Source of the DNA: a bacterium
GTDB lineage: Bacteria > Bdellovibrionota_C > UBA2361 > SZUA-149 > JAEUWB01
DNA: 32,198 bases
Assembly (NCBI GenBank): GCA_016786595.1
Contig: JAEUWB010000007.1
Coordinates: 1 to 32,198, forward strand
Reading direction: 5' to 3'
The number at the start of each line of letters is the position of its first letter. Within the stretch, counting starts at the first letter, position 1. The notes under the pieces are model-generated. The model did not search any database and was not told where the DNA came from. It saw only the letters and a program-made list of their open reading frames with translations. This document shows, in pieces, positions 2,590 to 26,379 of this stretch. The position numbers and the translations under genes were made by a program.

Positions 2590-3540
2590 GTGCTCACTGA
2601 TTCTTCGACATTGAGAGAACTTGCCGGAAGACCGCAAGCGCAGTCGCACATTCCGGCAGCTGTGACCGATGTTGGTTGCGAACGTGAAATTAACGAAGAT
2701 CGTTATGCCGTGATCGATTCCCCTCAAGGACGGGCCTGGATTGTTTGTGATGGCATGGGCGGGGTCATGGGTGGTGAGCTAGCGGCACAGCTTGCAATTG
2801 ATGCCATGCGTCGCGTGCTTGAAACATCTGACTCTGCAACTCCAGCAGAAACAATTAAATCTGCAATCGAAGAAGCTAATCGAGTAATTGTTTTGCGTCG
2901 TCAAAATCCAGCGTTTAGCTCCATGGGTACGACTGTCATCGCTGCCATGCAAATGCTGGATGAAATCGTAATTGCCCATGCTGGTGATTCACGTGCATAC
3001 GTTGTGCGCGGTCAGGAAATCGAACAGCTCACAGTCGATCACACTTATGTGCAGGATTTAGTTGATAAGGGCGCAATCAAACCCGAAGACGCACTTTCTC
3101 ATCCACAGGCACACGTCCTAACGCGTTGTCTTGGTTCTGAACCACGCTTGAACCTGACATTGCAGCAATATTATCTCTGGGAGGCAGCCCAGCCTGATGT
3201 CTTAGTGCTTTGTAGTGACGGGCTTTATAGCTTAGTTTCTGACAAGGAGATCTCTCAAGTTGTTACTTCGCGCAGCCCGCAAGATGCTTGCGTTGATTTA
3301 GTCGAACTTGCGAAAAGTCGTGGAGGTTTCGATAATATTACCGTGGTAATTCTTCCGCTTGAAGGTCAATTACGAGAAGAAGCAAGCCCAAATCGTCCAA
3401 CAATTGAACGTAAGCAGCATTTACTTTTTGAAGACGAACTCGACCTTCCACCAGTTCCATTGTGGAAGCGTTTATTAATTATCACTCTCCTCATGTGTTT
3501 CGGTTGTGCTGGGACATTGTTGTTCATGTTCTTGACGTGA
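2590..3540 (+). CDS. PP2C-family Ser/Thr protein phosphatase, membrane-anchored
   Basis: It dephosphorylates phospho-Ser/Thr proteins, most likely substrates of the neighbouring kinase. All bacterial PP2C signatures are present over residues 25-257: TDVGCEREINEDRY (metal-binding ED), CDGMGG with D54, MGTTV at 112-116, HAGDSRAYV at 130-138, CSDGLY with D210, and GGFDNIT with D248. Unlike many soluble PppA/Stp1 enzymes it has a C-terminal membrane helix at about 292-314, so the catalytic domain faces the cytoplasm. The GTG start is chosen because GGGGAGG lies 5-10 bases upstream. It is the first gene of a phosphatase, FHA, kinase row just before the Tad genes, an order that recalls the threonine phosphorylation control of some type VI secretion systems. 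Confidence 0.93.
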   Translation: MLTDSSTLRELAGRPQAQSHIPAAVTDVGCEREINEDRYAVIDSPQGRAWIVCDGMGGVMGGELAAQLAIDAMRRVLETSDSATPAETIKSAIEEANRVIVLRRQNPAFSSMGTTVIAAMQMLDEIVIAHAGDSRAYVVRGQEIEQLTVDHTYVQDLVDKGAIKPEDALSHPQAHVLTRCLGSEPRLNLTLQQYYLWEAAQPDVLVLCSDGLYSLVSDKEISQVVTSRSPQDACVDLVELAKSRGGFDNITVVILPLEGQLREEASPNRPTIERKQHLLFEDELDLPPVPLWKRLLIITLLMCFGCAGTLLFMFLT

Positions 3541-3610
3541 GAGAGTTTAAAAATGAAGGCAGTAAAATTGTAGTGAGTGGGACACTAAAGCTATAAAAAA
3601 GTGAGGACAT

Positions 3611-4408
3611 ATGAGCGAAGAATGGCCAAAAGATTCAAATAATCCTGCAGCTCCAGCGGAGCTTGCCAAGGATAATAACGATCCGAAAACAGCGCTGGCA
3701 TCACGTGCGCGGAATCGTACTGTAATGTTACCTCCCGAGGTGACCGGACAAGTCCGTTCAATGCTTGGCCAGGATCCAACTGGGAAAAAACTAGATCCTT
3801 TAGCTGAGATTATGAATGCGCATCAGTCAGCTAGTGAGTCCGCGCGTAAGCTAGATCTGTCACGACCTGCGAGCGAAGCTGCGGCACCACTTTCTAGTGA
3901 TTCTGCAGGATTTATTTCGCTAGCATCTCGTGAAGGGGCAGCTAAACCACGGCCACAAGTGGCACCAAGCCAACATGTAGTACAAGCAGCTAAGGCACCA
4001 GAAATACCTCAAGAGCGTCACGCCCCAGCTCCAGTACGGGCAATTTCAAAAGGACCAAAGACCAAATTAACTGGCTTCTTGATTAGTTTTGACAAAGAAG
4101 AGCTTGGTGAAGTGATTGAACTTCGCGTTGGTCGCTGGTTATTGAGCTCGCGCATGACAGACCATAACGAGACGATTTTAATTGAAGATGAGAGCGTTTC
4201 TCCCTTGCATGCCATTATTCGTGCAACGCAAGACGGGAAAATTCAAATTCTCGATCAATTATCAGAATTCGGAACCGGTGTTACCCGTGCCAAGTCTGAA
4301 CAGGAAGAGGAAGTCACAGGAAGTATGACCACTGTAACTCACGGAGACAAAGTGCGTTTCGGTAAAAGACATTTTATCGTCTGCACGATTCCCGGTGTGA
4401 GTGCCTAA
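3611..4408 (+). CDS. FHA-domain protein with long disordered N-terminus
   Basis: This is a 265-residue cytoplasmic protein. Residues 1-150 are rich in Ala, Pro, Ser, Lys and Glu and probably disordered; they include RTVMLPPEVTG, a possible kinase-substrate Thr. Residues 155-262 form an FHA domain, the phosphothreonine-binding fold: GRWLLSS, then ESVSPLHAIIRA (the Ser and His of the binding loop) and LSEFGTGV. A long acidic insert, KSEQEEE, sits before the last strands. It has a GTGAGGA ribosome binding site. Sitting between a PP2C phosphatase and a Ser/Thr kinase, it is likely a phospho-dependent adaptor. The FHA domain is visibly similar to that of the protein at 19118-20398, pointing to an ancient duplication within this locus. 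Confidence 0.85.
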   Translation: MSEEWPKDSNNPAAPAELAKDNNDPKTALASRARNRTVMLPPEVTGQVRSMLGQDPTGKKLDPLAEIMNAHQSASESARKLDLSRPASEAAAPLSSDSAGFISLASREGAAKPRPQVAPSQHVVQAAKAPEIPQERHAPAPVRAISKGPKTKLTGFLISFDKEELGEVIELRVGRWLLSSRMTDHNETILIEDESVSPLHAIIRATQDGKIQILDQLSEFGTGVTRAKSEQEEEVTGSMTTVTHGDKVRFGKRHFIVCTIPGVSA

Positions 4409-4419
4409 CTTCTTGATGA

Positions 4420-5853
4420 TTGGATAACGATACGCAGTGTGCGTTGGACGATCATTCGTCCGTAGCTAGTGAGGTTAATGTGCAAGGAATGAGTGAGGAC
4501 CAATTTCTTCACCTACAGCCAGGAACGGTCGTAAATGGCCGCTACGAGATTGTAAAATGTCTCGGCACTGGAAGTATGGGTTTGGTCTATGCCTGCAGGC
4601 ATCGCGAGCTTGCTGGGCACCTTGTTGCCATGAAAGTGCTGTTTTCGGAAGTCGCACGTGATCAAGTCGCAGTACAACGTTTCCGCAATGAGATTGTAGC
4701 ATCCTATGGCGTGAGTCACCCCAATGTGGTTCGTGCCTATGAGTATTTCCGTGATGGAGATTTGGTCGCATTTACCATGGAATACGTTGGCGGTGGAGAT
4801 TTGGCAGACCGTATCGTGCAAGATGAATTACTCACTGTGCCTGAAATTGTGCGCATGCTTTCGCAAATGTGTTCAGGTGTGCAGGCAATTCATGAAGCAG
4901 GAATCATCCATCGAGATTTAAAACCCGAGAATATTTTGCTAACCGCTCAAGGTGATATTAAAATTACTGATTTTGGTATTGCGCGCACTGGTTCAGGTCC
5001 AAAGCTCACCGAGCATGGGGGCGTTGTTGGTACAATTGATTATGTTAGCCCTGAATACCTGGAGAAAGGACAAGTCGACGCACGTTCTGATATTTATGCA
5101 CTTGGAGTGCTTGGTTTTGAAATGATTACTGGCGAGGCGCCTTTTAAGGGTAAAAGCGTGATCGAAACGATGACTTTGAGATTGAAGTCTGACCCGCCAT
5201 TTCCTAGTGAAATCCGTAATGACTGCCCACCTGAATTAGATCAAATTATCATGCGTGCGATGAAGCGTGACCCGGAAGAGCGTTATCAAACAGCTAAGCA
5301 AATCTATCGTGATTTGCAAGATCTGATGGGCGGAGGAACGCGCACCTATTCTCGTGACAGACTCGAGAAACAAGTCAAACAAGTCAAGCAAAGCTCTGAT
5401 GCAAGTGTTCAAGCAAAGCCTTCTGGATACACTGCCAACGGCAGTAATGCAGGGAATCAAAGTATTCCTACAGAATTTTCACAAATCGCTGTAAAAGACA
5501 TTCCTGGGTCTAAGGATTCGAAACGTGGGACCTCAGGGTCGAGAAAGAAATTCGACCCTGATGATGTCGAAGAACTTGAAAGTGTTTTGGGTAATCAATC
5601 AGTGGTTGCAGGCCCGCGCGGATTCTCAGAACGCGTGCCGCGGGTTGCCGTTGGCCACTCACACTTGTCAGCAGATCGCATCCGTGCACTCTCTGATGGT
5701 ATTTATACCGAAGAGACGAGTATGTTTAAAACGCTTTTGGTCTGGACGATGGTATTAATTTTGGGATTTGTTGTTACCTTGGTAGTCTTACGCGAGATTC
5801 GACCTGATTTATTTGGTGCTGCAAAGTCTAAAGTTGGAATCGTGGTAAAGTAG
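4420..5853 (+). CDS. Membrane Ser/Thr protein kinase (PknB/PpkA-like)
   Basis: It is a complete Hanks-type kinase. The kinase domain spans about residues 42-310: glycine loop LGTGSMGLVY, K72 in VAMKVL, E91 in the C helix, HRDLKPEN with D166 and N171, and DFG with D184. GTIDYVSPEYL follows, with Ser replacing Ala in APE. A linker of about 120 residues with a KQVKQVKQ repeat follows, then one membrane helix at about 437-457 and a short outer tail, so the kinase domain is cytoplasmic. The longest frame uses a TTG at 4420 with no clear ribosome binding site; the ATG at 4489, 23 codons later, is a good alternative and keeps the whole kinase domain. The start is therefore unsure, the function is not. 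FHA proteins and Tad/T3SS parts nearby are the likely substrates. Confidence 0.93.
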   Translation: MDNDTQCALDDHSSVASEVNVQGMSEDQFLHLQPGTVVNGRYEIVKCLGTGSMGLVYACRHRELAGHLVAMKVLFSEVARDQVAVQRFRNEIVASYGVSHPNVVRAYEYFRDGDLVAFTMEYVGGGDLADRIVQDELLTVPEIVRMLSQMCSGVQAIHEAGIIHRDLKPENILLTAQGDIKITDFGIARTGSGPKLTEHGGVVGTIDYVSPEYLEKGQVDARSDIYALGVLGFEMITGEAPFKGKSVIETMTLRLKSDPPFPSEIRNDCPPELDQIIMRAMKRDPEERYQTAKQIYRDLQDLMGGGTRTYSRDRLEKQVKQVKQSSDASVQAKPSGYTANGSNAGNQSIPTEFSQIAVKDIPGSKDSKRGTSGSRKKFDPDDVEELESVLGNQSVVAGPRGFSERVPRVAVGHSHLSADRIRALSDGIYTEETSMFKTLLVWTMVLILGFVVTLVVLREIRPDLFGAAKSKVGIVVK

Positions 5854-6152
5854 GTTGTCCCTTGGCAACAAAGCTTGGTCTGCCAGAATGCCATTGTTTT
5901 TCTCAAGATCTTGGCCGCTCCGGACACTAAAGATTTTCTACATTTTACTAATAACTTCGCCGATTGGCTCGCTGATCCAGAGTTATTTACTAGGCAAAAA
6001 GCCTATCTGCTGATACTTTGTAGTGATCAACTGCATCTAAATGATAGAAAAGTTTTGTTGCTTCCGGGTATAGTATTCAGGAAGCATCTGGTGTGATGAA
6101 TGACTCTGGGCATTATCTCGACCGTGTAAATTTAATGAAGGTTATATAACCA
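5854..6152 (+). promoter_or_regulatory. Intergenic region upstream of tadZ with palindrome at the start codon
   Basis: This gap of about 300 bp holds no convincing gene. A 73-codon frame (5875-6096) needs a TTG start and lacks a ribosome binding site. At 6140-6151, one base before the tadZ ATG, lies the perfect 12-bp palindrome GGTTATATAACC, which overlaps part of the ribosome binding region (GAAGG at about 6137-6141). Such a site could be an operator or an RNA hairpin that affects tadZ translation, but palindromes of this length and AT content can also arise by chance. Confidence 0.35.
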
Positions 6153-7409
6153 ATGAGAGTTTTAATCGTTGATAATTCTGCTGAAGGTCAACAGCAAGTT
6201 GCAAAACGCATTGAAGTATTTAATCAAAGTGACGTTGAGACTTTGGATTTACGTGTCAAGCTCGTGCTCGACCGTGATGTCGAATCACAATTCCGTGAAG
6301 CAGACGTTTTAATTTTAGGCGCCAATCTGGGTGAGACTGCCGTACAAATTGCACGTTCGGCTCTTACGCAAACTCCCTGGCTGCACATCGTGATGTATGT
6401 CACGAACGAAGCCTATTCGGGCGGAGCTTTTCGCACAGCGCACTCTGCAGGTGTGAGGAAAGTGCTGCCTGAGTCATCAGACCCACTTGATCTCTTGCAA
6501 GAGCTTGTCGCAATTCATGCCGAGTTTCGCCGTGAAGGACGCACACGTGAGGGGCGCGTTGTTTGCGTGACGCATGCAAAAGGTGGCACTGGAGCCACCA
6601 GCATTTGCGCCGCTTTAGCTGAAGTTTGTAGTGTTTATCGCCGCCGCACTATGCTTTGGGATCTGGACGTAGAGACTAGAGACTTGTGCCGATCGTTGAC
6701 GGTGAATGGCTTAGAAGCAAAAGTTGTGAGCTCCTGGGTAAATGGTTCGCGTGAAATTTCGCGTGAAAGTATTGTCGATGCGCTCATTCCCGTCAGTCAG
6801 GACGTCTCTGTTCTGATGCCTCCGGACAGTATGGCTGAATCCATGGATTTAGTTTGTCACACTGATGGCATGCAAATTTGCCAGCGCATTATTGATCTAG
6901 CCCGCGTGATGCAGGATGTGATTTTAATTGATACAGGCGGAAGAATTGGTCCTGCAACTGGTGCGCTGATGCGCATGGCCGACGAAGTCTTGATTGTGAT
7001 TGATGATACGGTGCTTGGATTAACTGCGCTTGACTTGTACTTAAGCTATGCAAAAACTCTTGTTGCTGGTTCGGAAAGACTGAACTTTGTCGTTAACGGA
7101 TATAGCGGAGCACTTTTAGCTGTGCCACAGATTGAGGCAGAATTAGAGCCAGTGCATCACTTAGGGCAACGTCCCTGGAGATTGCCTCCGGTGCCAGTAG
7201 ACCCTAAAGCTTCACTTTGGCCGGGAAGTGGGAGAACACTTTATAGCTTAGGACAAAAATCAACCCGCGCAGCGCTTGAGGAAGTTGCTTTAGAATTAAA
7301 GCTTGTTTCAAGAGAAGATGAAATTGCTACTCAATCGCGTAAATCCTCAAAAACTTGGTGGGAAAAATTCCTTCCAGCAGGCGAACAAAAGGATGAAAAT
7401 CAGCAATAA
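6153..7409 (+). CDS. tadZ: TadZ/CpaE-like pilus localisation ATPase
   Basis: This 418-residue Tad pilus protein belongs to the ParA/MinD superfamily. Residues 1-125 look like a receiver-type domain (LIVDNS at the start, then DVLILGANLG), which CpaE/TadZ proteins carry as an atypical receiver. Residues 135-385 are the ATPase-like domain. The deviant Walker A reads KGGTGATS at 143-150: the P-loop Lys is Ala148, but the MinD-type signature Lys143 is kept. DLDVETRDL and ILIDTGG correspond to the switch and Walker B-like segments. Non-canonical Walker A loops are known in TadZ proteins, so this is not decay. The protein is expected to place the Tad machine at the membrane. The end of the gene overlaps the left arm of a terminator-like hairpin. 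Confidence 0.9.
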   Translation: MRVLIVDNSAEGQQQVAKRIEVFNQSDVETLDLRVKLVLDRDVESQFREADVLILGANLGETAVQIARSALTQTPWLHIVMYVTNEAYSGGAFRTAHSAGVRKVLPESSDPLDLLQELVAIHAEFRREGRTREGRVVCVTHAKGGTGATSICAALAEVCSVYRRRTMLWDLDVETRDLCRSLTVNGLEAKVVSSWVNGSREISRESIVDALIPVSQDVSVLMPPDSMAESMDLVCHTDGMQICQRIIDLARVMQDVILIDTGGRIGPATGALMRMADEVLIVIDDTVLGLTALDLYLSYAKTLVAGSERLNFVVNGYSGALLAVPQIEAELEPVHHLGQRPWRLPPVPVDPKASLWPGSGRTLYSLGQKSTRAALEEVALELKLVSREDEIATQSRKSSKTWWEKFLPAGEQKDENQQ

Positions 7410-7440
7410 TTGCTAATATATTGAAACTATTGCTGATTTT
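7396..7440 (+). terminator. Hairpin terminator after tadZ
   Basis: A perfect 13-bp inverted repeat, AAAATCAGCAATA (7396-7408) and TATTGCTGATTTT (7428-7440), encloses a 19-base loop. The left arm covers the last tadZ codons. The right arm ends in four T residues, which is short for an intrinsic terminator, so termination may be partial. It separates tadZ from the pilin gene and suggests that the pilin has its own promoter. Confidence 0.6.
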
Positions 7441-7683: not shown

Positions 7684-7869
7684 ATGACAACAGAAAATAA
7701 AGATTTGCAAATTCAAAATAAAAGCGAAAAAGGCGCAACAATGCTAGAGTACGCTCTACTAGCTGCTCTAATTGCTGTAGTTTGTATCGTAGCAATTACT
7801 TTCTTAGGCCAGCAGGCTTCAACATCTTTTAGCCGAGTAGGTAGTTCACTTAGCGGAGCAAACGGCTAA
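7684..7869 (+). CDS. flp: Flp-type (type IVb) pilin
   Basis: This is a 61-residue prepilin of the Tad system. The short hydrophilic leader ends with Lys-Gly at residues 16-17, followed by ATMLEYALLAALIAVV. Cleavage by a TadV-type prepilin peptidase after Gly17 would leave mature residues beginning Ala-Thr-Met-Leu-Glu-Tyr, with the invariant Glu+5 and Tyr+6 of Flp pilins. The rest is one hydrophobic helix and a short Ser/Gly-rich tail, giving a mature subunit of 44 residues. An upstream TTG at 7678 would add two residues, but the ATG is better spaced from GTGGGG. A strong terminator follows directly, so the pilin is likely a single-gene transcript. Confidence 0.92.
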   Translation: MTTENKDLQIQNKSEKGATMLEYALLAALIAVVCIVAITFLGQQASTSFSRVGSSLSGANG

Positions 7870-7894
7870 TACCGTCACCGGCTACGCTTATAGT

Positions 7895-7938
7895 AAGAGC
7901 CGCTTTTCGGATATTTGCCGAAAGCGGCTCTTTTTATT
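7895..7938 (+). terminator. Strong Rho-independent terminator after flp
   Basis: The left arm AAGAGCCGCTTTTCGG (7895-7910) pairs with CCGAAAGCGGCTCTT (7918-7932) with one bulged base and a 6-7 base loop, followed by a run of five T (7931-7935). The stem is GC-rich and long. It should end the pilin transcript and isolate it from cpaB. Confidence 0.88.
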
Positions 7939-8339
7939 GTAAATTATCGATAGAGCCAAACGTCTAGGGTCGGCTATAGCTTGACCTCGCACTTCTATCT
8001 ATTTGATATATTTGGGTTTTATCCTAGTTTATTTTTAATAACTGATATTTTTGTTTTTTGAATCTCATTTTAAGCTAAACTATTCAAAATAGTAGGGCAA
8101 TTATATCTGCCCATGGCTAAAAAAGTCTTAAACGTACAGACCGGTACTGCCGATTGTACGGAAGTGAAGCTTTTTGGCTCATAGCGTAAAGCAGCAGTTT
8201 AATTTAATATTTTATTGCGCGCTTGTAGAAGTTAAAATTTTGGTACGGGTGGGTTGTAGTTTGGCTCTTTTCCCGTTTTGAAACACAGAGTGAAGAGCGA
8301 ATTTAGATTATCGTGGTTTTGCTGAGGAGCAATTAGGTT
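7939..8339 (+). promoter_or_regulatory. Long leader upstream of cpaB with stacked hairpins
   Basis: This 401-bp region carries no convincing gene. TTGAAT at 8058-8063 and TATTCA at 8081-8086, 17 bases apart, are a weak promoter candidate. If used, the transcript would begin near a GGGCA/TGCCC stem (8095-8112). It would then reach a second, better stem: CGTACA (8133-8138) with TGTACG (8155-8160), an internal loop, and an inner CGG/CCG pair around a TACTG loop (8142-8152). About 180 bases of leader remain before the cpaB ribosome binding site (GAGGAG near 8322). This could be a cis-acting RNA controlling the pilus operon. It does not match the c-di-GMP-I riboswitch consensus as I know it. Confidence 0.35.
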
Positions 8340-9272
8340 ATGGCAACTCGTTTTGGTGCACCAAGTCCTGCGAAGGCATATGCGACAAAGGTCCGTTGGA
8401 TTATTGGCAGCCTGTCAGCGACAATATTGATTCTTGTTGCGGTGATATTAATCATCGCCAATCAAACTGCGGATACGCCCCCTGATGCAAATCCGAGTAC
8501 AACGATTTCAGATCCTGGCGTTGCTAACGCCAGCACTCAGGCGCAACCAGCTGTTGAAGTCCTAGTTGCAAATCAACGTATTGAAATTGGCTCACCCTTG
8601 ATGCCGCACATGTTCATCTCACAGGCTGTGCCACTTGACCGCCAGCCAGCAGGGGCAATTCCTGCAGCACAAAAAGATGCGCTGGTGGGGAAGTATGCCA
8701 AGAACTTGATCAATGCAAATTTACCACTCTTGCAAGACGACATCTCTGATCAAAAGCCCTTAACTTCCGTAATTGATGCGATTCCACCGGGATTTCGTGC
8801 TGTAACAATTCAAGTCGATGCGCGTTCAGCTGTTGAAGGTTGGGCACAACCAAATTCACGTGTGGACGTGCTCTGGACCTACAAAGACAAAGACGGCGAA
8901 CAGCGCGTTGCTACAATCGTCCACTTTTCGAAAGTATTGTCCGTTGGTGGTGCAACGGCAAACGATCCAAATGCTCAAAAAGGCGGCGCTTCTACAGTGA
9001 CACTATTAGTATCTGAAACAGATGCTAAAAAAATTGAACTGGCGCGTAATCTCGGTTCATTGAGTCTATCTCTTGTGGGCGGGAGTGAAACTGGCAAGGT
9101 TACCTCTGATCCGGATCCAATCGACATTACCCAGATTGTGCCACGTGGCCCAGAAGTTGCGGCTGAAGAACCAGATGCAGATGGCGTGATGTATGCAACT
9201 GACCCAGCCACAGGTAAGCAAATCAAGTTTATTCTCCAAGGCAAACAGTGGAAACGTGATCCGAATTTTTAA
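8340..9272 (+). CDS. cpaB: CpaB/RcpC pilus assembly protein
   Basis: This 310-residue Tad assembly protein acts in the periplasm next to the secretin. One membrane helix at about residues 20-43 anchors it. A SAF domain follows (VEVLVANQRIEIGSPL and the later VGKYAKNLI, about residues 72-140), then the RcpC/CpaB region (GFRAVTIQVDARSAVEGW, RVDVLWTY, and VTLLVSETDAKKIELA near 225-240). The ATG start has GAGGAG upstream and gives the expected N-terminal helix. CpaB normally works with the outer-membrane secretin CpaC/RcpA, but no such gene lies in this window. Confidence 0.9.
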   Translation: MATRFGAPSPAKAYATKVRWIIGSLSATILILVAVILIIANQTADTPPDANPSTTISDPGVANASTQAQPAVEVLVANQRIEIGSPLMPHMFISQAVPLDRQPAGAIPAAQKDALVGKYAKNLINANLPLLQDDISDQKPLTSVIDAIPPGFRAVTIQVDARSAVEGWAQPNSRVDVLWTYKDKDGEQRVATIVHFSKVLSVGGATANDPNAQKGGASTVTLLVSETDAKKIELARNLGSLSLSLVGGSETGKVTSDPDPIDITQIVPRGPEVAAEEPDADGVMYATDPATGKQIKFILQGKQWKRDPNF

Positions 9273-11925: not shown

Positions 11926-11931
11926 GTTGAA

Positions 11932-12858: not shown

Positions 12859-12874
12859 GAGCTGGGGAGGAAAT

Positions 12875-19117: not shown

Positions 19118-20398
19118 ATGGGAGTAAATGAAACAGAGTTGAAGATGATTCGCTGCCCGGGGTGCCGGGCGCTAGTTTCTGCAAATGCGACAAAGTGCCG
19201 GATGTGTGGAGAAGAATTGAGATCCGAAGCTGCCGCACAAGAGCCTCCGCGTCAGAGCGAAGTATCAGTCCCTGAACAGGAATCAAAACGCAGTCGTATT
19301 CGCCAACGCACAATGACCATGGCCGAGGAGGAATTGCATCCAGTGCGGGGAAGCGGCAGCCGTAGTGCCATTGATGAGCGTAAGCTTGAGGAGCGCAGTA
19401 GCGATCTTGAACGACGTAGTTTCGATCAACGCACTGTTGAGGATCTCGATGAATTCCCGATTAATGCAGATCTTGACGCAGTTGAGGATCGAGATTTTGA
19501 TCTACCTGATACTAAAGAATCACTGGCGGATCGCCCCAAACGACCAGCTTGGAGTATTAGTGGCTTCGATGAGAGTAGACCGTCGAAACTAAAAGAAATC
19601 GAGGACGAGGATTTTTCCACTCTGCCGCAGCTCTCAAGTGACGTCGAGGAGCAAGAAGAAGCTTGGGAGGAGCCTGGTGACGCGGATGAAATTGACGAAG
19701 GCGAGGAGGAAGATCTCAGTGCGGAAATTTCAAATCAGGCTGCAACTGGAGAACGTAAGCGCAGGCGCCGCCGTCGACGCAAAAAGAAGCCAACACAAAA
19801 CTTAGAACAGCCTGGTTTTGGCGCTGCAGGTGCAAGTGTTCAGCAATTTAGTAATGAGCAGCGCGCTCCCGAACAGCCAACCTATCAGCGACCTCAGGCA
19901 TTGCCAAAAGATCGTGAGCTGCTGCAGCGCGAGCAAGCAGCCTTCTACAGTCGCAGTGAAGCTAGAATTAACACCTTAACCGAGGAACCTCCAATGGATG
20001 AGCAGACACAAGCAGTAACCCCACTTAGTAAGCCAGATTTTTCAGCTGCAGGCGCATTGGTTGGTTGGTTTGTAAATTATGAAGGCAACGCCTTTGGCAT
20101 TTCAACAGAAATCCGTGACGGGCGGTTTTTTATCAGCAAGGAGCGGCTTAAGCCGACTGATATGTTGATTGCTAATGATACGATTTCCACTCCACATTGC
20201 GTGGTCAGGGCTTCAGCTGCAGAGGGAATTAAGGTGCAAGATATGTTTAGCGATCAGGGCACATACGTGCGCCGTGCTGGCAGCGATGTGTTTTATAAAC
20301 AATCCGGGTCATTCACTTTGGAACATGGAGATTGGTTACGCTTAGGTGAATATGAAGTCCAAGTCTGTTTATTGCAGCTTGGGCAAAAACGGCGCTAA
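19118..20398 (+). CDS. Zinc-ribbon protein with acidic linker and C-terminal FHA domain
   Basis: This is a 426-residue cytoplasmic protein. A short zinc ribbon near the N-terminus has four Cys (C13, C16, C27, C30 in CPGC and CRMC). Residues 50-300 are highly charged and disordered, with acidic stretches followed by an Arg/Lys run (RKRRRRRRRKKK) near residue 213; a TMTM near residue 65 may be phosphorylated. The C-terminal domain, about 315-420, is an FHA fold: GRFFISK, ISTPHCVVRA, DQGTYVRR, HGDWLRLGEYEVQV. Its pattern matches the FHA domain at 3611-4408 better than those in the neighbour at 17571. It has an AAGGTGAG ribosome binding site. The stop codon shares one base with the ATG of the sctJ frame. 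Confidence 0.83.
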   Translation: MGVNETELKMIRCPGCRALVSANATKCRMCGEELRSEAAAQEPPRQSEVSVPEQESKRSRIRQRTMTMAEEELHPVRGSGSRSAIDERKLEERSSDLERRSFDQRTVEDLDEFPINADLDAVEDRDFDLPDTKESLADRPKRPAWSISGFDESRPSKLKEIEDEDFSTLPQLSSDVEEQEEAWEEPGDADEIDEGEEEDLSAEISNQAATGERKRRRRRRRKKKPTQNLEQPGFGAAGASVQQFSNEQRAPEQPTYQRPQALPKDRELLQREQAAFYSRSEARINTLTEEPPMDEQTQAVTPLSKPDFSAAGALVGWFVNYEGNAFGISTEIRDGRFFISKERLKPTDMLIANDTISTPHCVVRASAAEGIKVQDMFSDQGTYVRRAGSDVFYKQSGSFTLEHGDWLRLGEYEVQVCLLQLGQKRR

Positions 20399-21312
20399 TG
20401 CTAAAAATTGCGAGTCAGATTGGACAATCACGGATGCAGATGTCTTTGCGGATAATTTTGATTACGACGCTTTGGTCTTGCCTTTTACTGGCAGGTTGCC
20501 GCAGCGAAGAAATTTTGCACAATGTTGATGAATCGCAGTCAATTGATGCGGCTGTCGCCTTAGGTAAGGCTGGGATAGCTTCAAAGCGAAGCAGTTCAGG
20601 CAAGGCCGGCCAATATTCACTCGCAGTCGAGAGTAGTCAGGCACTTCAGGCCTTAGAAGTCCTGAAAAAATTTGGATTTCCCAAGAAACCTAATGACGAA
20701 CTTTTAACTTTGACTGCAACAGATGGTTTTGTGCCGACAAGTCCAAAACTCGCTGAGCTTAGGTATTTGCGGGGCCTCGGTGCAGAGGCGGAGCGGATTT
20801 TACGCGCTAAAGAGGGAGTAATTGATGCGACGGTTGTTGTCAGTTTTAGACTTGCTGCGGAAGAGCTGGACTTGAGTGTTTCTTCGCGGCCGCTTAGTGC
20901 TGCAGTTGTTGTCAAAATGCTTAAGCCTAGAACGATGAGCGCGAGTGATTCTCCAACTAGTGAAGTAGCCTTAATTACTTCGCTAGTTAGTCATGCACTA
21001 CCCAATCTACCCGCAGACCAGGTGCAAGTAAGTGTAGAGACGGTTGAGACCGATCATGAGGCAGCTACTGTTTTTGCACGGCTTGAGCCATTTTTCTTTG
21101 AAGTTCGTCAGAGTCAAAAGCAAAATGCGCAAATTCAAGTCGTCTTAATTCTATTAATTGTCGCCGTGGCGGCTTTAGTAGTTGGAACGTGGACAGGGTT
21201 TCGCGTTGGCGGAACGCGTGCGCGTAAGTCATTATTGAAGCTGCAATCTAGTTTAAAGAACGATTCAAAATTAATTGAAGGCTCAGATTCTACTTCCGAG
21301 GGCGAAAGATGA
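20398..21312 (+). CDS. sctJ: SctJ, T3SS inner-membrane ring lipoprotein (YscJ/FliF family)
   Basis: A signal peptide ends in the lipobox LLAGC with the lipid-bearing Cys at residue 34 counted from the first ATG. ATGs at residues 13 and 15 would give a more usual 20-residue signal peptide and are good alternative starts. After the Cys come the YscJ-type ring-building domains: a short first domain containing GKAGIAS, then a second with LRYLRGLGAEAERILRAKEGVIDATVVVSF. A C-terminal membrane helix spans 246-270, with a short cytoplasmic tail. SctJ forms the periplasmic inner ring around the SctRST pore. The first ATG overlaps the upstream stop by one base, and the 3' end overlaps the next gene by 4 bp, so translation is coupled on both sides. 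Confidence 0.9.
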   Translation: MLKIASQIGQSRMQMSLRIILITTLWSCLLLAGCRSEEILHNVDESQSIDAAVALGKAGIASKRSSSGKAGQYSLAVESSQALQALEVLKKFGFPKKPNDELLTLTATDGFVPTSPKLAELRYLRGLGAEAERILRAKEGVIDATVVVSFRLAAEELDLSVSSRPLSAAVVVKMLKPRTMSASDSPTSEVALITSLVSHALPNLPADQVQVSVETVETDHEAATVFARLEPFFFEVRQSQKQNAQIQVVLILLIVAVAALVVGTWTGFRVGGTRARKSLLKLQSSLKNDSKLIEGSDSTSEGER

Positions 21313-21536
21313 GCGACCTTAGGCGCTTCCATAGTTTAGATCCACGTGAGCAACTAGTTTTGGCTCTAGGTATTCTACTGGACGGTAATCAAGTAACCGA
21401 ATTTATTGCTGCAGACCTTGAACGCGGAGCGCCGCTTGTAAAGGCTGCTCAGGAGGTTTTAGCCTTGCCAACGGATCTGCAGCTACAATTCCTCGGGACG
21501 ATTATTAGGAGGCAGATCAGTGGAAAAATCTCCTAA
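21309..21536 (+). CDS. Small unknown T3SS-operon protein
   Basis: This 75-residue soluble helical protein has an ATG that overlaps the sctJ stop (ATGA) and a 3' end that overlaps the next start by 17 bp. That double coupling makes it a real gene. It begins MSDLRRFHSLDPREQLVLAL and has amphipathic helices and no signal peptide, membrane helix or Cys. The position between sctJ and the sctO-like gene is where the stator genes (sctK, sctL) and the ATPase gene sctN lie in many T3SS operons. It is too short for SctL and has no ATPase motifs. It may be a remnant or a lineage-specific accessory such as a chaperone or adaptor. I do not recognise a family. Confidence 0.6.
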   Translation: MSDLRRFHSLDPREQLVLALGILLDGNQVTEFIAADLERGAPLVKAAQEVLALPTDLQLQFLGTIIRRQISGKIS

Positions 21537-22008
21537 GCGTTCACCGAAAACGCTACACTCACTATTGTCCTTGGCTGGCGTTACTGAGAAGGAACAAGTT
21601 AAATCCTTGCACGGTGTGCGTGCGGTGGTTAGCGAACGTGAGCAGGCGTATCAGCGGGCAGTTTCTGAAATTGACCAGATTGACCAGAAACTTCAGGACC
21701 TGCACCAGCAAGCAGGCAAAGCTTTAGTTGCTCAAGGAAATATCCAAGATTTGAAAGTGATTCGTAATTATGAACAGCGCCTTCAAGCTCAGCGTGACCA
21801 ACTCAAGTCAATCCTTGAGACTCAGCGCGAAGACCTAACGCGGGCACGTCATTATGAGTCACGTGCCGAGAGTAGTGTATCTGCGGCGCGCATTGAGAAG
21901 CGCAAAATTGAATCGTTAATGAATGCCGAGGCGATTAAGCATGTGCGGGTGCGTTTATCACAGGAAGAGCAGGAGCTTGATGAGAACTCGAGTAAGAAGA
22001 AAAAGTAG
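21520..22008 (+). CDS. sctO: SctO-like coiled-coil stalk protein (YscO/FliJ type)
   Basis: It is a 162-residue, almost entirely helical, charged protein. Two long heptad-patterned segments, about residues 40-85 and 90-150, form the antiparallel coiled coil typical of YscO/FliJ; RNYEQRLQAQRDQL lies near the turn. It ends in a Lys-rich tail. A GTG start is used, with an excellent AGGAGG at 21508-21513. FliJ/SctO proteins sit inside the T3SS ATPase ring and contact the SctV cytoplasmic ring. The location just before sctQ supports the call, since sequence identity in this family is low. Its presence is notable because no SctN ATPase is encoded nearby. Confidence 0.75.
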   Translation: MEKSPKRSPKTLHSLLSLAGVTEKEQVKSLHGVRAVVSEREQAYQRAVSEIDQIDQKLQDLHQQAGKALVAQGNIQDLKVIRNYEQRLQAQRDQLKSILETQREDLTRARHYESRAESSVSAARIEKRKIESLMNAEAIKHVRVRLSQEEQELDENSSKKKK

Positions 22009-22011
22009 TTT

Positions 22012-23121
22012 ATGAGTGATGGATTTGATTCGCAAAGAGTGGGGAATCTTGAGATTTGGCAGCAAGTCAATGCATTGGAAAAGCTTGATGCTGAGAGTGT
22101 GCGTTATAGTTTGGGACTATTGCGTGCAAATCTCAAATCATTGCTTCCAGACTTTGGAAAAATTTGGAATCAGTTTGCTGCAACGAAAACTGAGCTAAAG
22201 ATCGCAACAACCGACTGCAGCTGGAAAATTGGATTTCCTGAAGGAGTGCAGCGCTTGCATTCCTTTTTACTTAACGATGAAATTGCCGTGATTGGCATTG
22301 ATCAAGATGCAGAACAGCTCATTAATCTAGCGCTTGCTGAGCTTGGTGACTTAAATCCGCAACTTAAACTTGAGGTTAAGGCACAAAAAGCTTTAACAGA
22401 TTACCTGGAGCGACGCTTGCTTGCTTGTGCTGCTAGAGTCTGGAACCAGCATTGGGCTAAAGACGGAGCCGCAGAAGTGGCAATTAGCTATGTTGCACCG
22501 GGCAAGAACCAGAGCGCAGAAATAATTATTACAGCGGAATCTTCAATTCAATATCAAGGGCAGGCAAACCGTAGCGGCAAGCTCTATTGCGGCTTTGGTC
22601 CAAAGGCGGCAAGCATTATTGATTCTGCATGGCGCGCAAAAATTTCCGCGGAGCGTCCAATTCAGATTCAGGCGCGAGACCTGCACGTAGTGAGCTTTGA
22701 AATCGGAAGCTTTAATTTGTCGCCTAGCGAATTGCTGGATTACTTGCGCCCGGGCGCGATTATTCCCATCGGCACTTTGCGTTTACCGCGAGTCGATATT
22801 TGCGTAGATGGTGTTTGTCAGGCACAGGCAGAGTTAGTTAGTTTTAATGGCAAGTTTGCTGCTCGAGTGACAGAGATTATTAACGCTCCAGTTGAGACTA
22901 CTCCAGTCACAGAAGGAAGGTCACTTTTACGTGTCGAGCTTGCACGGGTTTTACTAGAGCCCACGGCTATTTATGAATTTTTCCAGAGTGGGGCAATTAT
23001 CCCTACCCAAGTCTCACTTGCCCCTACGGCCTTGATTTTTATGAGTGGTGAACGCGTGGCTTCGGGCTCAATTGGGAAAACATCCGATGGGAAGCTGGCG
23101 ATAAGCATCTTGCCGAAATAA
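22012..23121 (+). CDS. sctQ: SctQ, T3SS sorting-platform/C-ring protein with two SpoA domains
   Basis: This is a 369-residue cytoplasmic protein. The N-terminal two thirds are variable. Residues 231-296 form the first SpoA (FliN-like) domain, with LSPSELLDYLRPGAIIPI and a following VDICVDG, and about 300-369 the second, with LEPTAIYEFFQSGAIIPT and ending GKLAISILP. The repeated AIIP motif shows the paired domains. SctQ builds pods or a ring under the export gate that recruit substrates, normally together with SctK, SctL and SctN. The ATG lies 3 bp after the sctO-like stop. It directly precedes sctR, the usual T3SS order. Confidence 0.88.
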   Translation: MSDGFDSQRVGNLEIWQQVNALEKLDAESVRYSLGLLRANLKSLLPDFGKIWNQFAATKTELKIATTDCSWKIGFPEGVQRLHSFLLNDEIAVIGIDQDAEQLINLALAELGDLNPQLKLEVKAQKALTDYLERRLLACAARVWNQHWAKDGAAEVAISYVAPGKNQSAEIIITAESSIQYQGQANRSGKLYCGFGPKAASIIDSAWRAKISAERPIQIQARDLHVVSFEIGSFNLSPSELLDYLRPGAIIPIGTLRLPRVDICVDGVCQAQAELVSFNGKFAARVTEIINAPVETTPVTEGRSLLRVELARVLLEPTAIYEFFQSGAIIPTQVSLAPTALIFMSGERVASGSIGKTSDGKLAISILPK

Positions 23122-23144
23122 GCATTCTAAGCGACCCTAGCCGG

Positions 23145-23816
23145 GTGGAAAATTCATTAGTTAATACCTTTATATTTTGGCAGTCGCTTGATCTTTCAAG
23201 TTTTGGAATTGCTGCGCTACTACTGACGGCTTTAACTTTAAGTTCCTTCATTAAAATCGTCACCGTGCTTGGGCTGGTTCGTGCAGGGTTTGGTGTCGAT
23301 AACTTTCCTGCAGGACTGATTGTCACTTTATTGGCGCTTGTGCTCTCTTATTTTGTGATGATTCCAGTGATCGACCGGAGCGTGGCTCAAAGCGTTACTG
23401 CCTGGAATAGCTCTGCAAGCCTGCAGCCCGCTGAACGTAAAGCAACTGCTGTTGCAGCAGGATTTGAAGTCTGGAAAGAATTTGCCTGGCAGCAAAGTGA
23501 TCAGGATGAACGCAATCGTTTTGCCACTTTGGCCGAGCAACTCGCAAAGAAAAAGGACTTCAAGGCGGATCGGAAATCATGGCAAGTGCTGGTGCCTGCC
23601 TTTGTCCTGACGGAATTAAAATCTGCCTTTACTACGGGCCTGACAATTTTTTTGCCATTTTTGGTGATTGACCTTCTGACGGCCAGTATCCTGATGGGCA
23701 TGGGCTATACGGCGCTTAATTCTCAGATTGTAGCCTTGCCCTTGAAAATATTACTTTTTGTGCTCGCGGATGGTTGGACTTTGATTATGACAAATCTGGT
23801 CGGCTCGTATATTTAG
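23145..23816 (+). CDS. sctR: SctR, T3SS export pore protein (FliP family)
   Basis: This 223-residue membrane protein has the family-defining second half: VLVPAFVLTELKSAFTTGLT, then FLPFLVIDLLTASILMGMG and LPLKILLFVLADGWTLI. Four hydrophobic segments are visible (about 14-40, 55-75, 160-190, 195-220). Five SctR subunits with SctS and SctT make the export pore. The start is a GTG at 23145, right after CCGGG, with no strong ribosome binding site, 23 bp after the sctQ stop. Unlike flagellar FliP it has no cleavable signal peptide, as usual for SctR. Confidence 0.94.
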   Translation: MENSLVNTFIFWQSLDLSSFGIAALLLTALTLSSFIKIVTVLGLVRAGFGVDNFPAGLIVTLLALVLSYFVMIPVIDRSVAQSVTAWNSSASLQPAERKATAVAAGFEVWKEFAWQQSDQDERNRFATLAEQLAKKKDFKADRKSWQVLVPAFVLTELKSAFTTGLTIFLPFLVIDLLTASILMGMGYTALNSQIVALPLKILLFVLADGWTLIMTNLVGSYI

Positions 23817-23836
23817 TTTTTGGGGTGCTTGCAGTT

Positions 23837-24103
23837 ATGGAAAATAGCTATGATCTTAGTTTAATTTCTTCTGCCTTTGGCTTGGTTCTACAACTGGCAC
23901 TACCGCTTTTAGCAATTACCTTACTTGGTGCGTTAATACTTGGAATTATCCAGACCGCAACACAAATTCAAGATGATTCAATTAAATTCACTGGGAAATT
24001 TATTGCAGGATTTTGCGCTTTAATGCTTTTCGGCCTTTCTACGCTACGCACTTTAACTGCCTATGCCGTGCGCTTGTGGGGAGATGTGCAGTGGTACCAG
24101 TAG
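23837..24103 (+). CDS. sctS: SctS, T3SS export pore protein (FliQ family)
   Basis: This 88-residue protein with two membrane hairpin helices (about 14-40 and 52-75) has the exact usual length of SctS. LLALGAL-type and QTATQIQDDSIKFTGKF motifs in the loop between the helices match the family pattern GIIQAATQIQE. A longer frame from a TTG at 23774 would lie inside sctR and is not needed; the ATG at 23837 has GGGGTG about 10 bases upstream. It follows the sctR stop by 20 bp and overlaps sctT by 13 bp. Confidence 0.92.
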   Translation: MENSYDLSLISSAFGLVLQLALPLLAITLLGALILGIIQTATQIQDDSIKFTGKFIAGFCALMLFGLSTLRTLTAYAVRLWGDVQWYQ

Positions 24104-24822
24104 TTCCCTTAGAGTTTCCACAGTTTATCTCTCAGTCGCCAGCAGGTCTCGAGTTTCTAACGCGCATTATTGGAATGAGTATTGTCCTGGCAGCAAGCTC
24201 TGTTACGTTACTCTCGATTTGTCTGGCAAGTTGCTTTGGAATTTCTATCGCCTATTTTGGTTTGCCATTTGCCACTCAGCTGACCAATCATGGTCCAGCG
24301 TTACTTTTGGCAGAAGGTCTGTATTTCGGAGCATTGCTGCAACTGGGTATTTTTAGCGCGCTGCTCCTTGGCAGCTGGATTGAGGGTATGTTGGGATTAA
24401 ACTTAAAACAAATCAATTGGAACAAGAGCGCAACGGGGCCATTAGTGGTGTTGCTGTATTTGGCCATTTTTAGCAGTGGGCTCAGTCAATATTTATTTCA
24501 ACAGTTACTGAGCGGACTGCTTGCTGGCCTGCCCTGGCAAGCTGAACAAATCTTAATGAGTCTGATTCGATTGGTTGCGCAAGCATTCTCAATTAGCGCC
24601 AGTGTTTGCCTGCCGTTAATGCTGCTTGTGCTTAGCTGCGATTTGCTGTTGGGGGCGATTTCGCGCATCTATCAGGATTTTTTTACAGTCAACACTACAG
24701 CTGCGTTGCGTCTCCAGTTAGTTATGCTGATTGTAGTGATTTTACTGCCGAGCATTGCCCTGCGAATGTTGCCCGAAGTTTTTAAAGTCAGTCGAGCGGA
24801 GTTAGACGGAGTGCCAAGATAG
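24091..24822 (+). CDS. sctT: SctT, T3SS export pore protein (FliR family)
   Basis: This 243-residue protein has six or so hydrophobic segments. The C-terminal half carries the FliR/SctT pattern FSISASVCLPLMLLVLSCDLLLGAISR. SctT closes the SctR-SctS helical pore. The open frame extends upstream to 24013 inside sctS, but the GTG at 24091 is preferred because GTGGGGAG lies 8 bases upstream and the resulting N-terminus has normal length. It is translationally coupled to sctS by the overlap. It is followed, after 60 bp, by sctU. Confidence 0.92.
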   Translation: MVPVVPLEFPQFISQSPAGLEFLTRIIGMSIVLAASSVTLLSICLASCFGISIAYFGLPFATQLTNHGPALLLAEGLYFGALLQLGIFSALLLGSWIEGMLGLNLKQINWNKSATGPLVVLLYLAIFSSGLSQYLFQQLLSGLLAGLPWQAEQILMSLIRLVAQAFSISASVCLPLMLLVLSCDLLLGAISRIYQDFFTVNTTAALRLQLVMLIVVILLPSIALRMLPEVFKVSRAELDGVPR

Positions 24823-24882
24823 CTGTTGCTGAAGATTTTAGTGTAAGCACTCAGTCTAACTAAGTGCCCTGAGGTAGTTACA

Positions 24883-25602
24883 GTGTCGAGTGAAAATCGC
24901 CCATACCCCCTAAGCTCGAGTAAGCGTGATCGCCTGCGCGCACAAGGAATTTTTCCACAAAGCGACTTACTAGTTGAAGCCTTGCGTTTGTGTGGCTTTT
25001 TATTGGTTTTGGCGTTTATGCTTCCACCGATGCTGCAGGGACTCTTGAATTTTGCTACTAAAGCATTTGCAAATTCCAACCTGCGTCAGGACCTCTGGTC
25101 AGTTGATTTTCTGGGATTCGGGGTGCAAATCTCCCAAGCCTTACTGGTGTTGATTGGCTTGCGGTTTTTGATTGGTTTGCTGCAATCTCGTTTTTTAATC
25201 GACTTTCGTTTGCTGGGGGTAAATTTGGGGCGTCTGGTTCAAGGTTTTCGTGGCTCGTTCAGGCGCGGGCTAAATGCGATGCTCTCGACGGTTATCGCCT
25301 GTCTGGCTTTATGCTTAGCATTTTATTATCTAGCGAGTAGGTCTAAGCAACTTGCCGAAGAAGCCTTAACTAGTGCAAATTTACTGACAACATCTGCATT
25401 ATTTAATAAGTTCTTGTGGACTGCTGGTGGGCTTTGCTGCATTGCAGTAGTGCTGGGCATCTTTGGATACGCTCTGCGCCGAGTTTTATTTTTCAAGGCG
25501 CATGCGATGACGCGTGAAGAAGTTGAGTCGGAGCGGCGCGAAGAAGAGATGTCAGATTTGATGCGTTCCAGCGTTCGTGAGCGTTCGCAGATCAATAAGT
25601 AA
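24883..25602 (+). CDS. sctU: SctU, C-terminally truncated T3SS switch protein (FlhB family)
   Basis: At 239 residues it is about two thirds of the usual 340-380. The N-terminus (SSSKRDRLRAQGIFPQS) matches the KLRDAREKGQ-type start of SctU. Four membrane segments lie at about 36-56, 80-105, 140-160 and 185-210. The conserved linker follows (HAMTREEVESERREEE, then LMRSSVRERSQ), as in FlhB where it reads MTKQEVKDEYK. The protein then stops. The cytoplasmic domain with the self-cleaving Asn-Pro-Thr-His, which switches substrate class, is missing. Only 51 bp separate the stop from the next gene, so there is no room for a frameshifted remnant. The GTG start has TGAGGTAG upstream. The pore-gating part is kept, the substrate switch is lost. 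Confidence 0.9.
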   Translation: MSSENRPYPLSSSKRDRLRAQGIFPQSDLLVEALRLCGFLLVLAFMLPPMLQGLLNFATKAFANSNLRQDLWSVDFLGFGVQISQALLVLIGLRFLIGLLQSRFLIDFRLLGVNLGRLVQGFRGSFRRGLNAMLSTVIACLALCLAFYYLASRSKQLAEEALTSANLLTTSALFNKFLWTAGGLCCIAVVLGIFGYALRRVLFFKAHAMTREEVESERREEEMSDLMRSSVRERSQINK

Positions 25603-25653
25603 ACCAGCAATAGCACGCAGAATACTGTACGGAACTTAACTTAGATAGAATTA

Positions 25654-26379
25654 ATGGCTTTTGACCGTGATCTAAATAACAAAGAACAAATTATAGATGA
25701 AAATCTATCTCGGGGCGTCACGTCCAGACCCAGCACTGAGGCGGCAGTGCTGAAAACTAACTCTGCTTTAAGTTACGCCCATTTAGATCTGCTAGCGAAG
25801 GCTCCGGTAGCAGCTTTGTTGCCCAGAATCGAGGCCTTGAATGTTCCGGTGCACGCGCCAATTTTCTTCCAAGCGCGACTGAATCAATTACTAAGCGGGC
25901 ATTCAAGTGAGCTGCAGCATGAAGTGGGAATGCTTCGACAAGTGTTAACCTGGCTTGGTCGTGGAGGCACAACTGAAATTCCAACAGCAACTTTTTACAC
26001 AACAGCTGATCTAATTTTAATTTATGAAGTTGGGAGGTTATATTATCTACTTGGATATTTTGCTGCGGCGGAGAGAATTTTCCTTGGTTTGTCTCAGCTC
26101 GATCATGGTCTGACAGCTTCGCGACTTGGTTTGGGATTATGTAAACTCGAAAATTCTTTATATGACGATGCGCTACATATTTTGCGAGAAGTTTGCACTT
26201 CTGGGCACTATCAATTGCCGGGCAAGTGTGCGCTGGTAGCCCTGTTTGTTAATGCTGGTGAATTATCGCGTGCTAAGTCCTTACTGCTTGAATTAGCTCC
26301 GGAACTTGAGTCTCAAGCCGTGCCCGGACTGCTTAGGAAATTTTGGGAAATCTTTTCCCTGCGGTGTGAAGGCCGTTAA
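25654..26379 (+). CDS. TPR-like protein, possible T3SS chaperone
   Basis: This 241-residue soluble protein ends the operon. Residues 105-225 are helical with TPR-like pairs: VGRLYYLLGYFAAAERIFLG, then LGLGLCKLENSLYDDALHIL and LVALFVNAGELSRAKSLLLE. The N-terminal 100 residues are polar and give no clear domain. Class II T3SS chaperones (SycD/SctG-like) are TPR proteins that bind translocators, so the position right after sctU makes that role attractive, though the protein is longer than a typical SycD (about 165). The start ATG lacks a strong ribosome binding site. The gap to sctU is 51 bp. Confidence 0.65.
   Translation: MAFDRDLNNKEQIIDENLSRGVTSRPSTEAAVLKTNSALSYAHLDLLAKAPVAALLPRIEALNVPVHAPIFFQARLNQLLSGHSSELQHEVGMLRQVLTWLGRGGTTEIPTATFYTTADLILIYEVGRLYYLLGYFAAAERIFLGLSQLDHGLTASRLGLGLCKLENSLYDDALHILREVCTSGHYQLPGKCALVALFVNAGELSRAKSLLLELAPELESQAVPGLLRKFWEIFSLRCEGR

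What the first reader, a model, noticed from the sequence alone, without database searches (positions are those of the whole stretch)
2590..26379. Tad pilus and T3SS export apparatus fused in one co-oriented array with kinase/FHA/phosphatase genes
Seen: tadZ, flp, cpaB, tadA, tadB and tadC are followed after 16 bp by sctV, and then sctJ, sctO-like, sctQ, sctR, sctS, sctT and sctU in tight or overlapping order, with five signalling proteins in front of and between them. Known: Myxococcus xanthus kills prey on contact with a Tad-like apparatus (Kil) plus a needle-less T3SS. Inferred: here both machines are one genetic unit, perhaps one composite envelope machine in a predatory or contact-killing lineage.
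Basis: partly seen in the sequence, partly recalled or inferred. Interest (0 to 1): 0.92.

Follow-up and report, generated by a model that had tools for sequence, protein, structure and literature searches.

The report
Phylum-wide joined Tad pilus and T3SS
In one whole uncultured bacterial phylum, the genes for a Tad pilus run straight into the genes for the export gate of a stripped-down type III secretion system, which suggests that two machines known to work together when Myxococcus kills prey are built here as one genetic, and perhaps one physical, unit.

Summary
The window is one whole contig of a 2.58 Mb MAG. It encodes PP2C–FHA–kinase–tadZ–flp–cpaB–tadA–tadB–tadC, then after 16 bp (with a Shine-Dalgarno motif) sctV, then pseudokinase/solenoid–FHA×3–Zn-FHA–sctJ–orf75–sctO–sctQ–sctR–sctS–sctT–sctU–SycD-like chaperone. 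It is not an assembly accident: tadC is followed by sctV in 40 of the 46 genomes held for this phylum, in 21 of 24 families. In other orders the array is split after the gene behind sctV, and sctV stays with tad while the rest of the T3SS forms a second cluster. The Tad-linked SctVs form one branch (100/100), separate from flagellar FlhA, from a second SctV in the same genomes, and from injectisome SctV. The system looks needleless: no secretin beyond GspD and PilQ, SctU without its switch domain, SctD reduced to tail-anchored FHA. Scattered TadE/G minor-pilin trios resemble the Kil Tips of Myxococcus. Best reading: a contact-triggered, phosphorylation-controlled Tad/T3SS export machine working like Kil plus T3SS*, but joined genetically. 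Physical fusion, substrates and predation are inferred, not shown. Kinship to the Myxococcus T3SS* could not be tested.

The parts
2590..3540 (+). PP2C-type protein phosphatase, C-terminal TM anchor
   Evidence: Pfam PP2C 2.4e-14; TM 295-313, same in relatives
3611..4408 (+). FHA-domain protein, soluble
   Evidence: Pfam FHA 8.4e-5
4420..5853 (+). Ser/Thr protein kinase with intact motifs (HRDLKPEN, DFG), C-terminal TM
   Evidence: Pfam Pkinase 2e-57; motifs; TM
6153..7409 (+). TadZ/CpaE-like ATPase
   Evidence: AAA_31 1.8e-9, CpaE homologue model 7.1e-14; 62-78% identical across the phylum
7684..7869 (+). Flp major prepilin
   Evidence: Pfam Flp_Fap 1.5e-12
7889..7940 (+). terminator-like stem-loop after flp (GAGCCGCTTTTCGG...CCGAAAGCGGCTC then TTTTTATT)
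   Evidence: read directly in the sequence; scan lists its core 7904-7924
8340..9272 (+). CpaB/RcpC
   Evidence: RcpC 7.8e-21, pilus_cpaB 1.1e-40
9320..10780 (+). TadA ATPase
   Evidence: T2SSE 2.9e-30; TadA-family 5.2e-61
10921..11925 (+). TadB platform protein
   Evidence: T2SSF 4.5e-14
11932..12858 (+). TadC platform protein
   Evidence: T2SSF 5.2e-8
12859..12874 (+). 16 bp tadC-sctV gap with Shine-Dalgarno-like GGGGAGG
   Evidence: sequence; no terminator-like site in it
12875..15046 (+). SctV export gate (ORF open from TTG 12845); member of a Tad-linked SctV branch
   Evidence: FHIPEP 2.9e-149; tree 100/100
15043..17547 (+). pseudokinase - TM - alpha-solenoid protein, solenoid probably periplasmic
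   Evidence: Pkinase 4.4e-11, HEAT_2 1.3e-5; catalytic motifs lost in all homologues with the kinase part; AF2 of residues 360-834 pLDDT 88; two homologues have signal/TM plus solenoid only
17571..19085 (+). triple-FHA protein with C-terminal TM, in the place of SctD, no periplasmic domain
   Evidence: FHA 2.4e-31, Yop-YscD_cpl 7.5e-18; TM 482-500 at the very end, same in relatives
19118..20398 (+). zinc-ribbon + FHA protein
   Evidence: DZR 0.0015 and FHA 0.0026, weak; conserved in place
20398..21312 (+). SctJ inner-ring lipoprotein
   Evidence: YscJ_FliF 1.1e-9; III_secr_YscJ 2.8e-28
21309..21536 (+). orf75, conserved helical protein of unknown family
   Evidence: 9 homologues; AF2 pLDDT 90; no PDB match
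21520..22008 (+). SctO/FliJ-like stalk
   Evidence: FliJ 0.0013; position
22012..23121 (+). SctQ C-ring protein
   Evidence: FliMN_C 3.2e-14
23145..23816 (+). SctR
   Evidence: FliP 1.1e-48
23837..24103 (+). SctS (ORF open from 23774)
   Evidence: Bac_export_3 3.9e-13
24013..24822 (+). SctT (true start uncertain, probably near 24097)
   Evidence: Bac_export_1 0.0032; position
24883..25602 (+). SctU, membrane part only, no NPTH autocleavage domain
   Evidence: Bac_export_2 5.4e-19; alignment A3
25654..26379 (+). TPR chaperone of SycD/LcrH/SctY type
   Evidence: LcrH_SycD hit in 7 of 7 homologues, best 1e-9

Best explanation
This is the genetic locus of a contact-activated hybrid apparatus. A Tad pilus motor/platform (TadZ, TadA, TadB, TadC, CpaB, Flp) is permanently paired with a needleless type III export apparatus (SctV, R, S, T, U, J, Q, O; SctN/SctL encoded elsewhere). 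Shown here: the linkage, its conservation through the phylum, the separate ancestry of this SctV, and the missing parts. Inferred: contact is relayed by a kinase/phosphatase/FHA circuit much as in the T6SS threonine-phosphorylation pathway; the Tad platform assembles and extends a pilus whose tip is one of several TadE/TadG minor-pilin complexes encoded elsewhere; the T3SS part, lacking needle and secretin, exports unfolded substrates (kept by the SycD-like chaperone) across the inner membrane only; and the pilus or its tips carry them on. It works like Myxococcus Kil plus T3SS*, probably to attack other cells, with the pseudokinase-solenoid protein as a likely bridge from the gate into the periplasm.
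For: tadC-sctV adjacency in 40 of 46 genomes and 21 of 24 families. In other orders sctV stays in the tad operon while FHAx3-ZnFHA-sctJ-orf75-sctO-sctQ-sctR-S-T-U-TPR form a separate cluster with no sctV. Tad-linked SctVs are one branch, 100/100, with or without the long rows. No genome of the phylum shows a Tad- or injectisome-type secretin: as a rule two matches, in G000 identified as GspD and PilQ, and 0 of 58 have the CpaC N-domain while the Caulobacter control does. SctU lacks the switch domain in six families. Terminal chaperone is SycD/LcrH-like. TadE/TadG trios lie elsewhere in the genome. In M. xanthus, Kil recruits the needleless T3SS*, the two co-localise, and Tips 1-3 need the T3SS* to kill (PMC12075869).
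Against: No expression, interaction or phenotype data. All genomes of the phylum seen here are MAGs. In M. xanthus the two machines are encoded at separate loci (PMC12075869, PMC8460266), so joint encoding is not needed for function. SctN/SctL are not in the cluster. G000 has three more Tad-like loci, so the scattered tips may serve another pilus. Family f11 keeps Tad and TadZ but seems to lack this SctV.
Confidence: 0.6

Rival explanations
1. Two separate machines share an operon only for co-regulation. The Tad pilus and the needleless T3SS are made together on contact but never touch; clustering reflects timing.
For: M. xanthus Kil and T3SS* come from separate loci yet work together, and pili still form without T3SS* (PMC12075869). 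The T3SS half is unlinked in several orders here, so most of it does not need linkage.
Against: Of all T3SS genes it is specifically sctV that stays with tad across orders. Plain co-regulation gives no reason for that gene alone.
Confidence: 0.3
2. The locus makes an adhesion or surface-sensing Tad pilus, and the T3SS remnant exports pilus parts or enzymes to the periplasm; no killing is involved.
For: No toxin or effector gene in the cluster. Tad pili serve mainly adhesion in other bacteria. No secretin for effector exit.
Against: A SycD/LcrH-type chaperone, the kinase/phosphatase/FHA circuit, and many variable TadE/G tips resemble the Kil arrangement.
Confidence: 0.15
3. Assembly chimera or chance neighbourhood in one MAG.
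For: Source is a 60-contig MAG.
Against: Same junction in 40 independent genomes and 21 families; even base composition along the contig.
Confidence: 0.01

Closest known systems
Myxococcus xanthus Kil (Tad-like) system plus needleless T3SS* (PMC8460266, PMC12075869, PMC3459982)
   Same: Tad core genes with FHA proteins; T3SS without secretin or needle; several minor-pilin tip clusters scattered in the genome; shared prepilin peptidase suspected for the major pilin.
   Different: In Myxococcus Kil is split over two loci with its own secretin KilC, and T3SS* is at a third locus (mxan_2434-2464). Here tad and sct form one array, with a separate SctV branch, no Tad secretin found in the phylum, SctU without switch domain and a pseudokinase-solenoid gene behind sctV. 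Co-occurrence of the two was stated to be restricted to Cystobacterineae (PMC10849154).
Tad/Flp pilus systems (Actinobacillus, Caulobacter)
   Same: Flp, CpaB/RcpC, TadZ, TadA, TadB, TadC.
   Different: No RcpA/CpaC secretin, no TadV, no TadD/E/F/G in the cluster.
Non-flagellar T3SS (injectisome)
   Same: SctV, R, S, T, U, J, Q, O and a SycD/LcrH-type chaperone.
   Different: No secretin, needle or ruler found in the cluster; SctD reduced to FHA plus TM; SctU lacks NPTH; SctV outside the sampled injectisome branch.
Flagellar export apparatus
   Same: Homologous gate proteins; the FlhA model scores slightly above the SctV model.
   Different: SctV is outside the FlhA branch. Most relatives have a separate flagellar set; it was not found in G000.
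T6SS threonine-phosphorylation pathway (PpkA/PppA/Fha), from general knowledge and the discussion in PMC8460266
   Same: Kinase, PP2C phosphatase and FHA protein encoded side by side with a contact-dependent machine.
   Different: Placed in front of Tad/T3SS genes; no T6SS genes in the window.

Membership tests
Tad/Flp pilus system | Flp prepilin, TadA ATPase, TadB/TadC platform, TadZ/CpaE, CpaB | tested here: met
Tad/Flp pilus system | dedicated outer-membrane secretin (RcpA/CpaC) | tested here: not met
   PF00263 finds only GspD and PilQ in G000 and usually two matches in relatives; PF13629 0 of 58 with a positive Caulobacter control
Tad/Flp pilus system | dedicated TadV prepilin peptidase | tested here: not met
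   one Peptidase_A24 in G000, 264 aa open frame, unlinked
Tad/Flp pilus system | TadE/F/G minor pilins | tested here: inconclusive
   absent from the cluster; TadE-TadE-large trios elsewhere, but it is unknown which pilus they serve
Non-flagellar T3SS | export apparatus SctR, S, T, U, V with SctJ and SctQ | tested here: met
   (SctT weak)
Non-flagellar T3SS | ATPase SctN with stator SctL | tested here: inconclusive
   sctL-sctN pair at G000:C9; its close relatives (52-70%) occur only in the window's order; assignment to this system not proven
Non-flagellar T3SS | outer-membrane secretin SctC | tested here: not met
Non-flagellar T3SS | SctU C-terminal NPTH autocleavage domain | tested here: not met
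   239 aa; absent in six families, present in the FlhB control
Non-flagellar T3SS | needle SctF and inner rod SctI | tested here: inconclusive
   none recognised in the window; short proteins are easily missed; the only candidates noted lie beside the second SctV and match no needle model
Flagellar export apparatus | SctV inside the FlhA branch | tested here: not met
   Tad-linked SctVs one side of a 100/100 branch
Myxococcus Kil + T3SS* | co-occurring Tad with FHA proteins and a secretin-less, needle-less T3SS | tested here: met
   literature PMC12075869; absence of a needle rests on sequence search only
Myxococcus Kil + T3SS* | dedicated Kil secretin KilC | tested here: not met
Myxococcus Kil + T3SS* | SctV/TadA phylogenetic kinship with M. 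xanthus | not testable with these tools
   no named Myxococcus sequence could be fetched; the single genome-contig scan went to TadZ
Myxococcus Kil + T3SS* | contact-dependent killing | not testable with these tools
   uncultured

The most novel reading that the evidence does not exclude
The SctV-R-S-T gate is built into the Tad platform, so that one composite inner-membrane machine moves substrates from cytosol to periplasm and loads them on Tad pilus tips, replacing needle and both secretins. It would be a secretion machine type of its own, ancestral to a whole phylum.
Probability: 0.3. Interest if true: 0.93.

Novelty: new variant of a known kind. Interest (0 to 1): 0.82.

Why it matters
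The link between a Tad pilus and a needleless T3SS was known from Myxococcus predation, where how the two cooperate is open and their co-occurrence was called restricted to Cystobacterineae (PMC10849154). Here a separate phylum has kept tadC and sctV side by side through 21 families, even where the rest of the T3SS lies elsewhere. That is independent evidence that the two are one functional machine, and it points at SctV-TadB/TadC as the contact to test. It also gives natural examples of a T3SS with neither secretin nor SctU switch domain.

Tried and rejected
(1) Chimera or chance: rejected by the phylum-wide junction. (2) SctV is a displaced flagellar FlhA: rejected by the tree. (3) Flp missing in some relatives: apparent in the first listing; most of those loci have it on a directed scan, three were not found. 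(4) orf75 as a known T3SS part: confident model but no PDB match with E <= 0.001. (5) Solenoid as a known fold partner: generic HEAT/ARM-like hits only, none with E <= 0.001, low TM-scores. (6) TPR protein against the PDB: only generic TPR hits among the best 60; NCBIfam was informative. (7) Other-phylum examples of tadC-sctV: the TadZ scan of 84,980 species gave 31 loci, nearly all titled as uncultured MAGs with varied labels; examples with an unrelated TadZ would be missed. (9) Two literature searches for a described joint tad-sct locus found none; absence from the library is not proof. The Cell Reports paper on T3SS* (10.1016/j.celrep.2022.111340) is not held. (10) Whether the C9 sctN belongs to this system: not settled.
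Full report
OBSERVATION. The window is the whole of contig C7 (32,198 bases) of a 2,575,016-base genome assembly, 96.8% complete, 0.59% contaminated. TadC ends at 12858. The best start of SctV is ATG 12875, with GGGGAGG in the 16-base gap, and the consensus scan lists no terminator-like site in that gap. flp is followed by a clear stem-loop with a T-run. Corrections: six signalling-type proteins, not five; a further small gene, orf75; and the last gene is a SycD/LcrH-like chaperone (7 of 7 homologues match that model at E up to 0.1, best 1e-9). Weak assignments are SctO (0.0013), SctT (0.0032) and Zn-FHA (0.0015-0.0026); they rest on position as well.

CONSERVATION. The held set has 46 genomes of this phylum, all one class, 24 families. 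Comparing TadC matches with SctV matches shows tadC followed by sctV on the same strand, at most 510 bases between matched parts, in 40 of 46 genomes and 21 of 24 families. Two of the 40 are weaker: G005 rests on a 30-residue TadC end at a contig edge and G004 on a weak SctV match (4e-7). Of the six without it, G011 and G044 are 66-70% complete; the G040 TadC match lies near a contig edge; G022 has a cut TadZ match and no TadC of this type; only G015 and G017 (family f11) look like real exceptions. The named scan of 84,980 species with a TadZ alignment gave 31 loci, with the same order PP2C-FHA-kinase-TadZ-(Flp)-CpaB-TadA-TadB-TadC-SctV-pseudokinase wherever the locus is long enough, except L073 and L074.

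SCTV STAYS WITH TAD. In the window's own order the T3SS genes follow directly in several families. In other orders the first cluster ends after the gene behind sctV, and FHAx3-ZnFHA-sctJ-orf75-sctO-sctQ-sctR-sctS-sctT-sctU-TPR forms a second cluster elsewhere, without a sctV; in some of these a few of the small genes were not recognised or the cluster is interrupted. So the gate is tied more tightly to the pilus platform than to its own export partners. That is the strongest hint of a physical tie found here; it is still an inference.

A SEPARATE EXPORT GATE. Genomes of this class carry up to three or four FliP/SctR matches and several FlhA/SctV genes: a flagellar set (not found in G000), a second non-flagellar set (in G000 on C60 and C38) and the Tad-linked set. 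In a 55-row maximum-likelihood tree the 31 Tad-linked SctVs (one of them assigned by sequence) form one side of a branch with 100/100 support, apart from FlhA, from the second SctV and from four injectisome references; this holds without the three rows L051, L054 and L111 that had the longest branches. The root is not inferred. Myxococcus sequences could not be reached, so the relation to T3SS* is open.

MISSING PARTS. Secretin searches give two proteins in G000, by their neighbours GspD (with GspE/F/G-like genes) and PilQ (with PilM/N/O-like genes). Relatives of the phylum show none to two, one shows three matches. The CpaC N-terminal domain is found in 0 of 58 genomes while the Caulobacter control is positive. 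This holds for all Tad-like loci of G000, including three without sctV, so it is not special to the joint locus. SctU ends after its membrane part in all six families aligned and lacks the NPTH domain that the FlhB control has. The FHAx3 protein in SctD's place ends in a TM helix with nothing beyond it. No needle or rod was recognised in the window.

NEW PARTS. The gene behind sctV encodes a pseudokinase (no glycine loop, no VAIK lysine, no DFG in the homologues with this part), one TM and a 475-residue alpha-solenoid (pLDDT 88; no close PDB match). In L054 and L111 the kinase part is gone and the protein starts with a lipoprotein-like signal or a TM helix, so the solenoid is probably periplasmic. 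orf75 is a helical protein (pLDDT 90) with no PDB match.

TIPS. TadE-type genes are scattered through most genomes of the phylum, 8 matches in G000 and 30 in G001. G000 has two TadE-TadE-large gene trios near the end of C60, an arrangement like the four kilLMN Tip clusters of M. xanthus (PMC12075869). One of the two large members matches the Tad family just under its cut-off (22.2 against 22.3 bits); the other has no Pfam match. Only one prepilin peptidase was found in G000.

MECHANISM. Shown: linkage, conservation, separate SctV, absent secretins and SctU domain. Inferred: contact signal through kinase, phosphatase and FHA; pilus assembly by TadA/B/C; inner-membrane export by SctV-R-S-T; delivery by pilus and tips; use against other cells. 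In M. xanthus the T3SS* is recruited by Kil, co-localises with it, and Tips 1-3 need it to kill (PMC12075869), while the T3SS* lacks secretin, needle and translocon (PMC12075869, PMC3459982). That makes the same working mode likely here; it does not make this locus a proven member.

LIMITS. The named relatives are uncultured assemblies with mixed NCBI labels (Bdellovibrionota, Myxococcota, Pseudomonadota, 'Deltaproteobacteria'); no phylum name is claimed. Adjacency outside the phylum was tested only through TadZ. No expression or phenotype data exist here.

Noticed in passing
window 29390-32197: Large RHS-repeat protein gene cut by the contig end; another RHS C-terminal piece lies on G000:C9:1665-2222, about 2.3 kb before sctL-sctN (L036).
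   Followed up: no
L115, L116, L117 (G000 C23, C51, C52): Three further Tad-like loci without sctV in the same genome; the C23 one has two FHA-TadA ATPases and a kinase gene.
   Followed up: partly
L038 6209-12345 and L095 1590-8272: A second non-flagellar T3SS: sigma factor, SctJ, FliN-like, two small proteins, SctV2, TPR lipoprotein; and SctR/S/T/U with a histidine kinase gene next to a stand-alone FlhB-like protein.
   Followed up: partly
L056, L057, L061, L063, L064, L067 upstream of PP2C: In other lineages a response regulator, a multi-TM hybrid histidine kinase and a small protein of 134-190 aa precede the cluster.
   Followed up: no
L121 7331-13966 (G016:C12): A second Tad copy of the same type without sctV carries its own TadE- and TadG-like genes, unlike the sctV-linked copy.
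   Followed up: partly
window 21309-21536: orf75: conserved helical protein between sctJ and sctO with no known family.
   Followed up: yes
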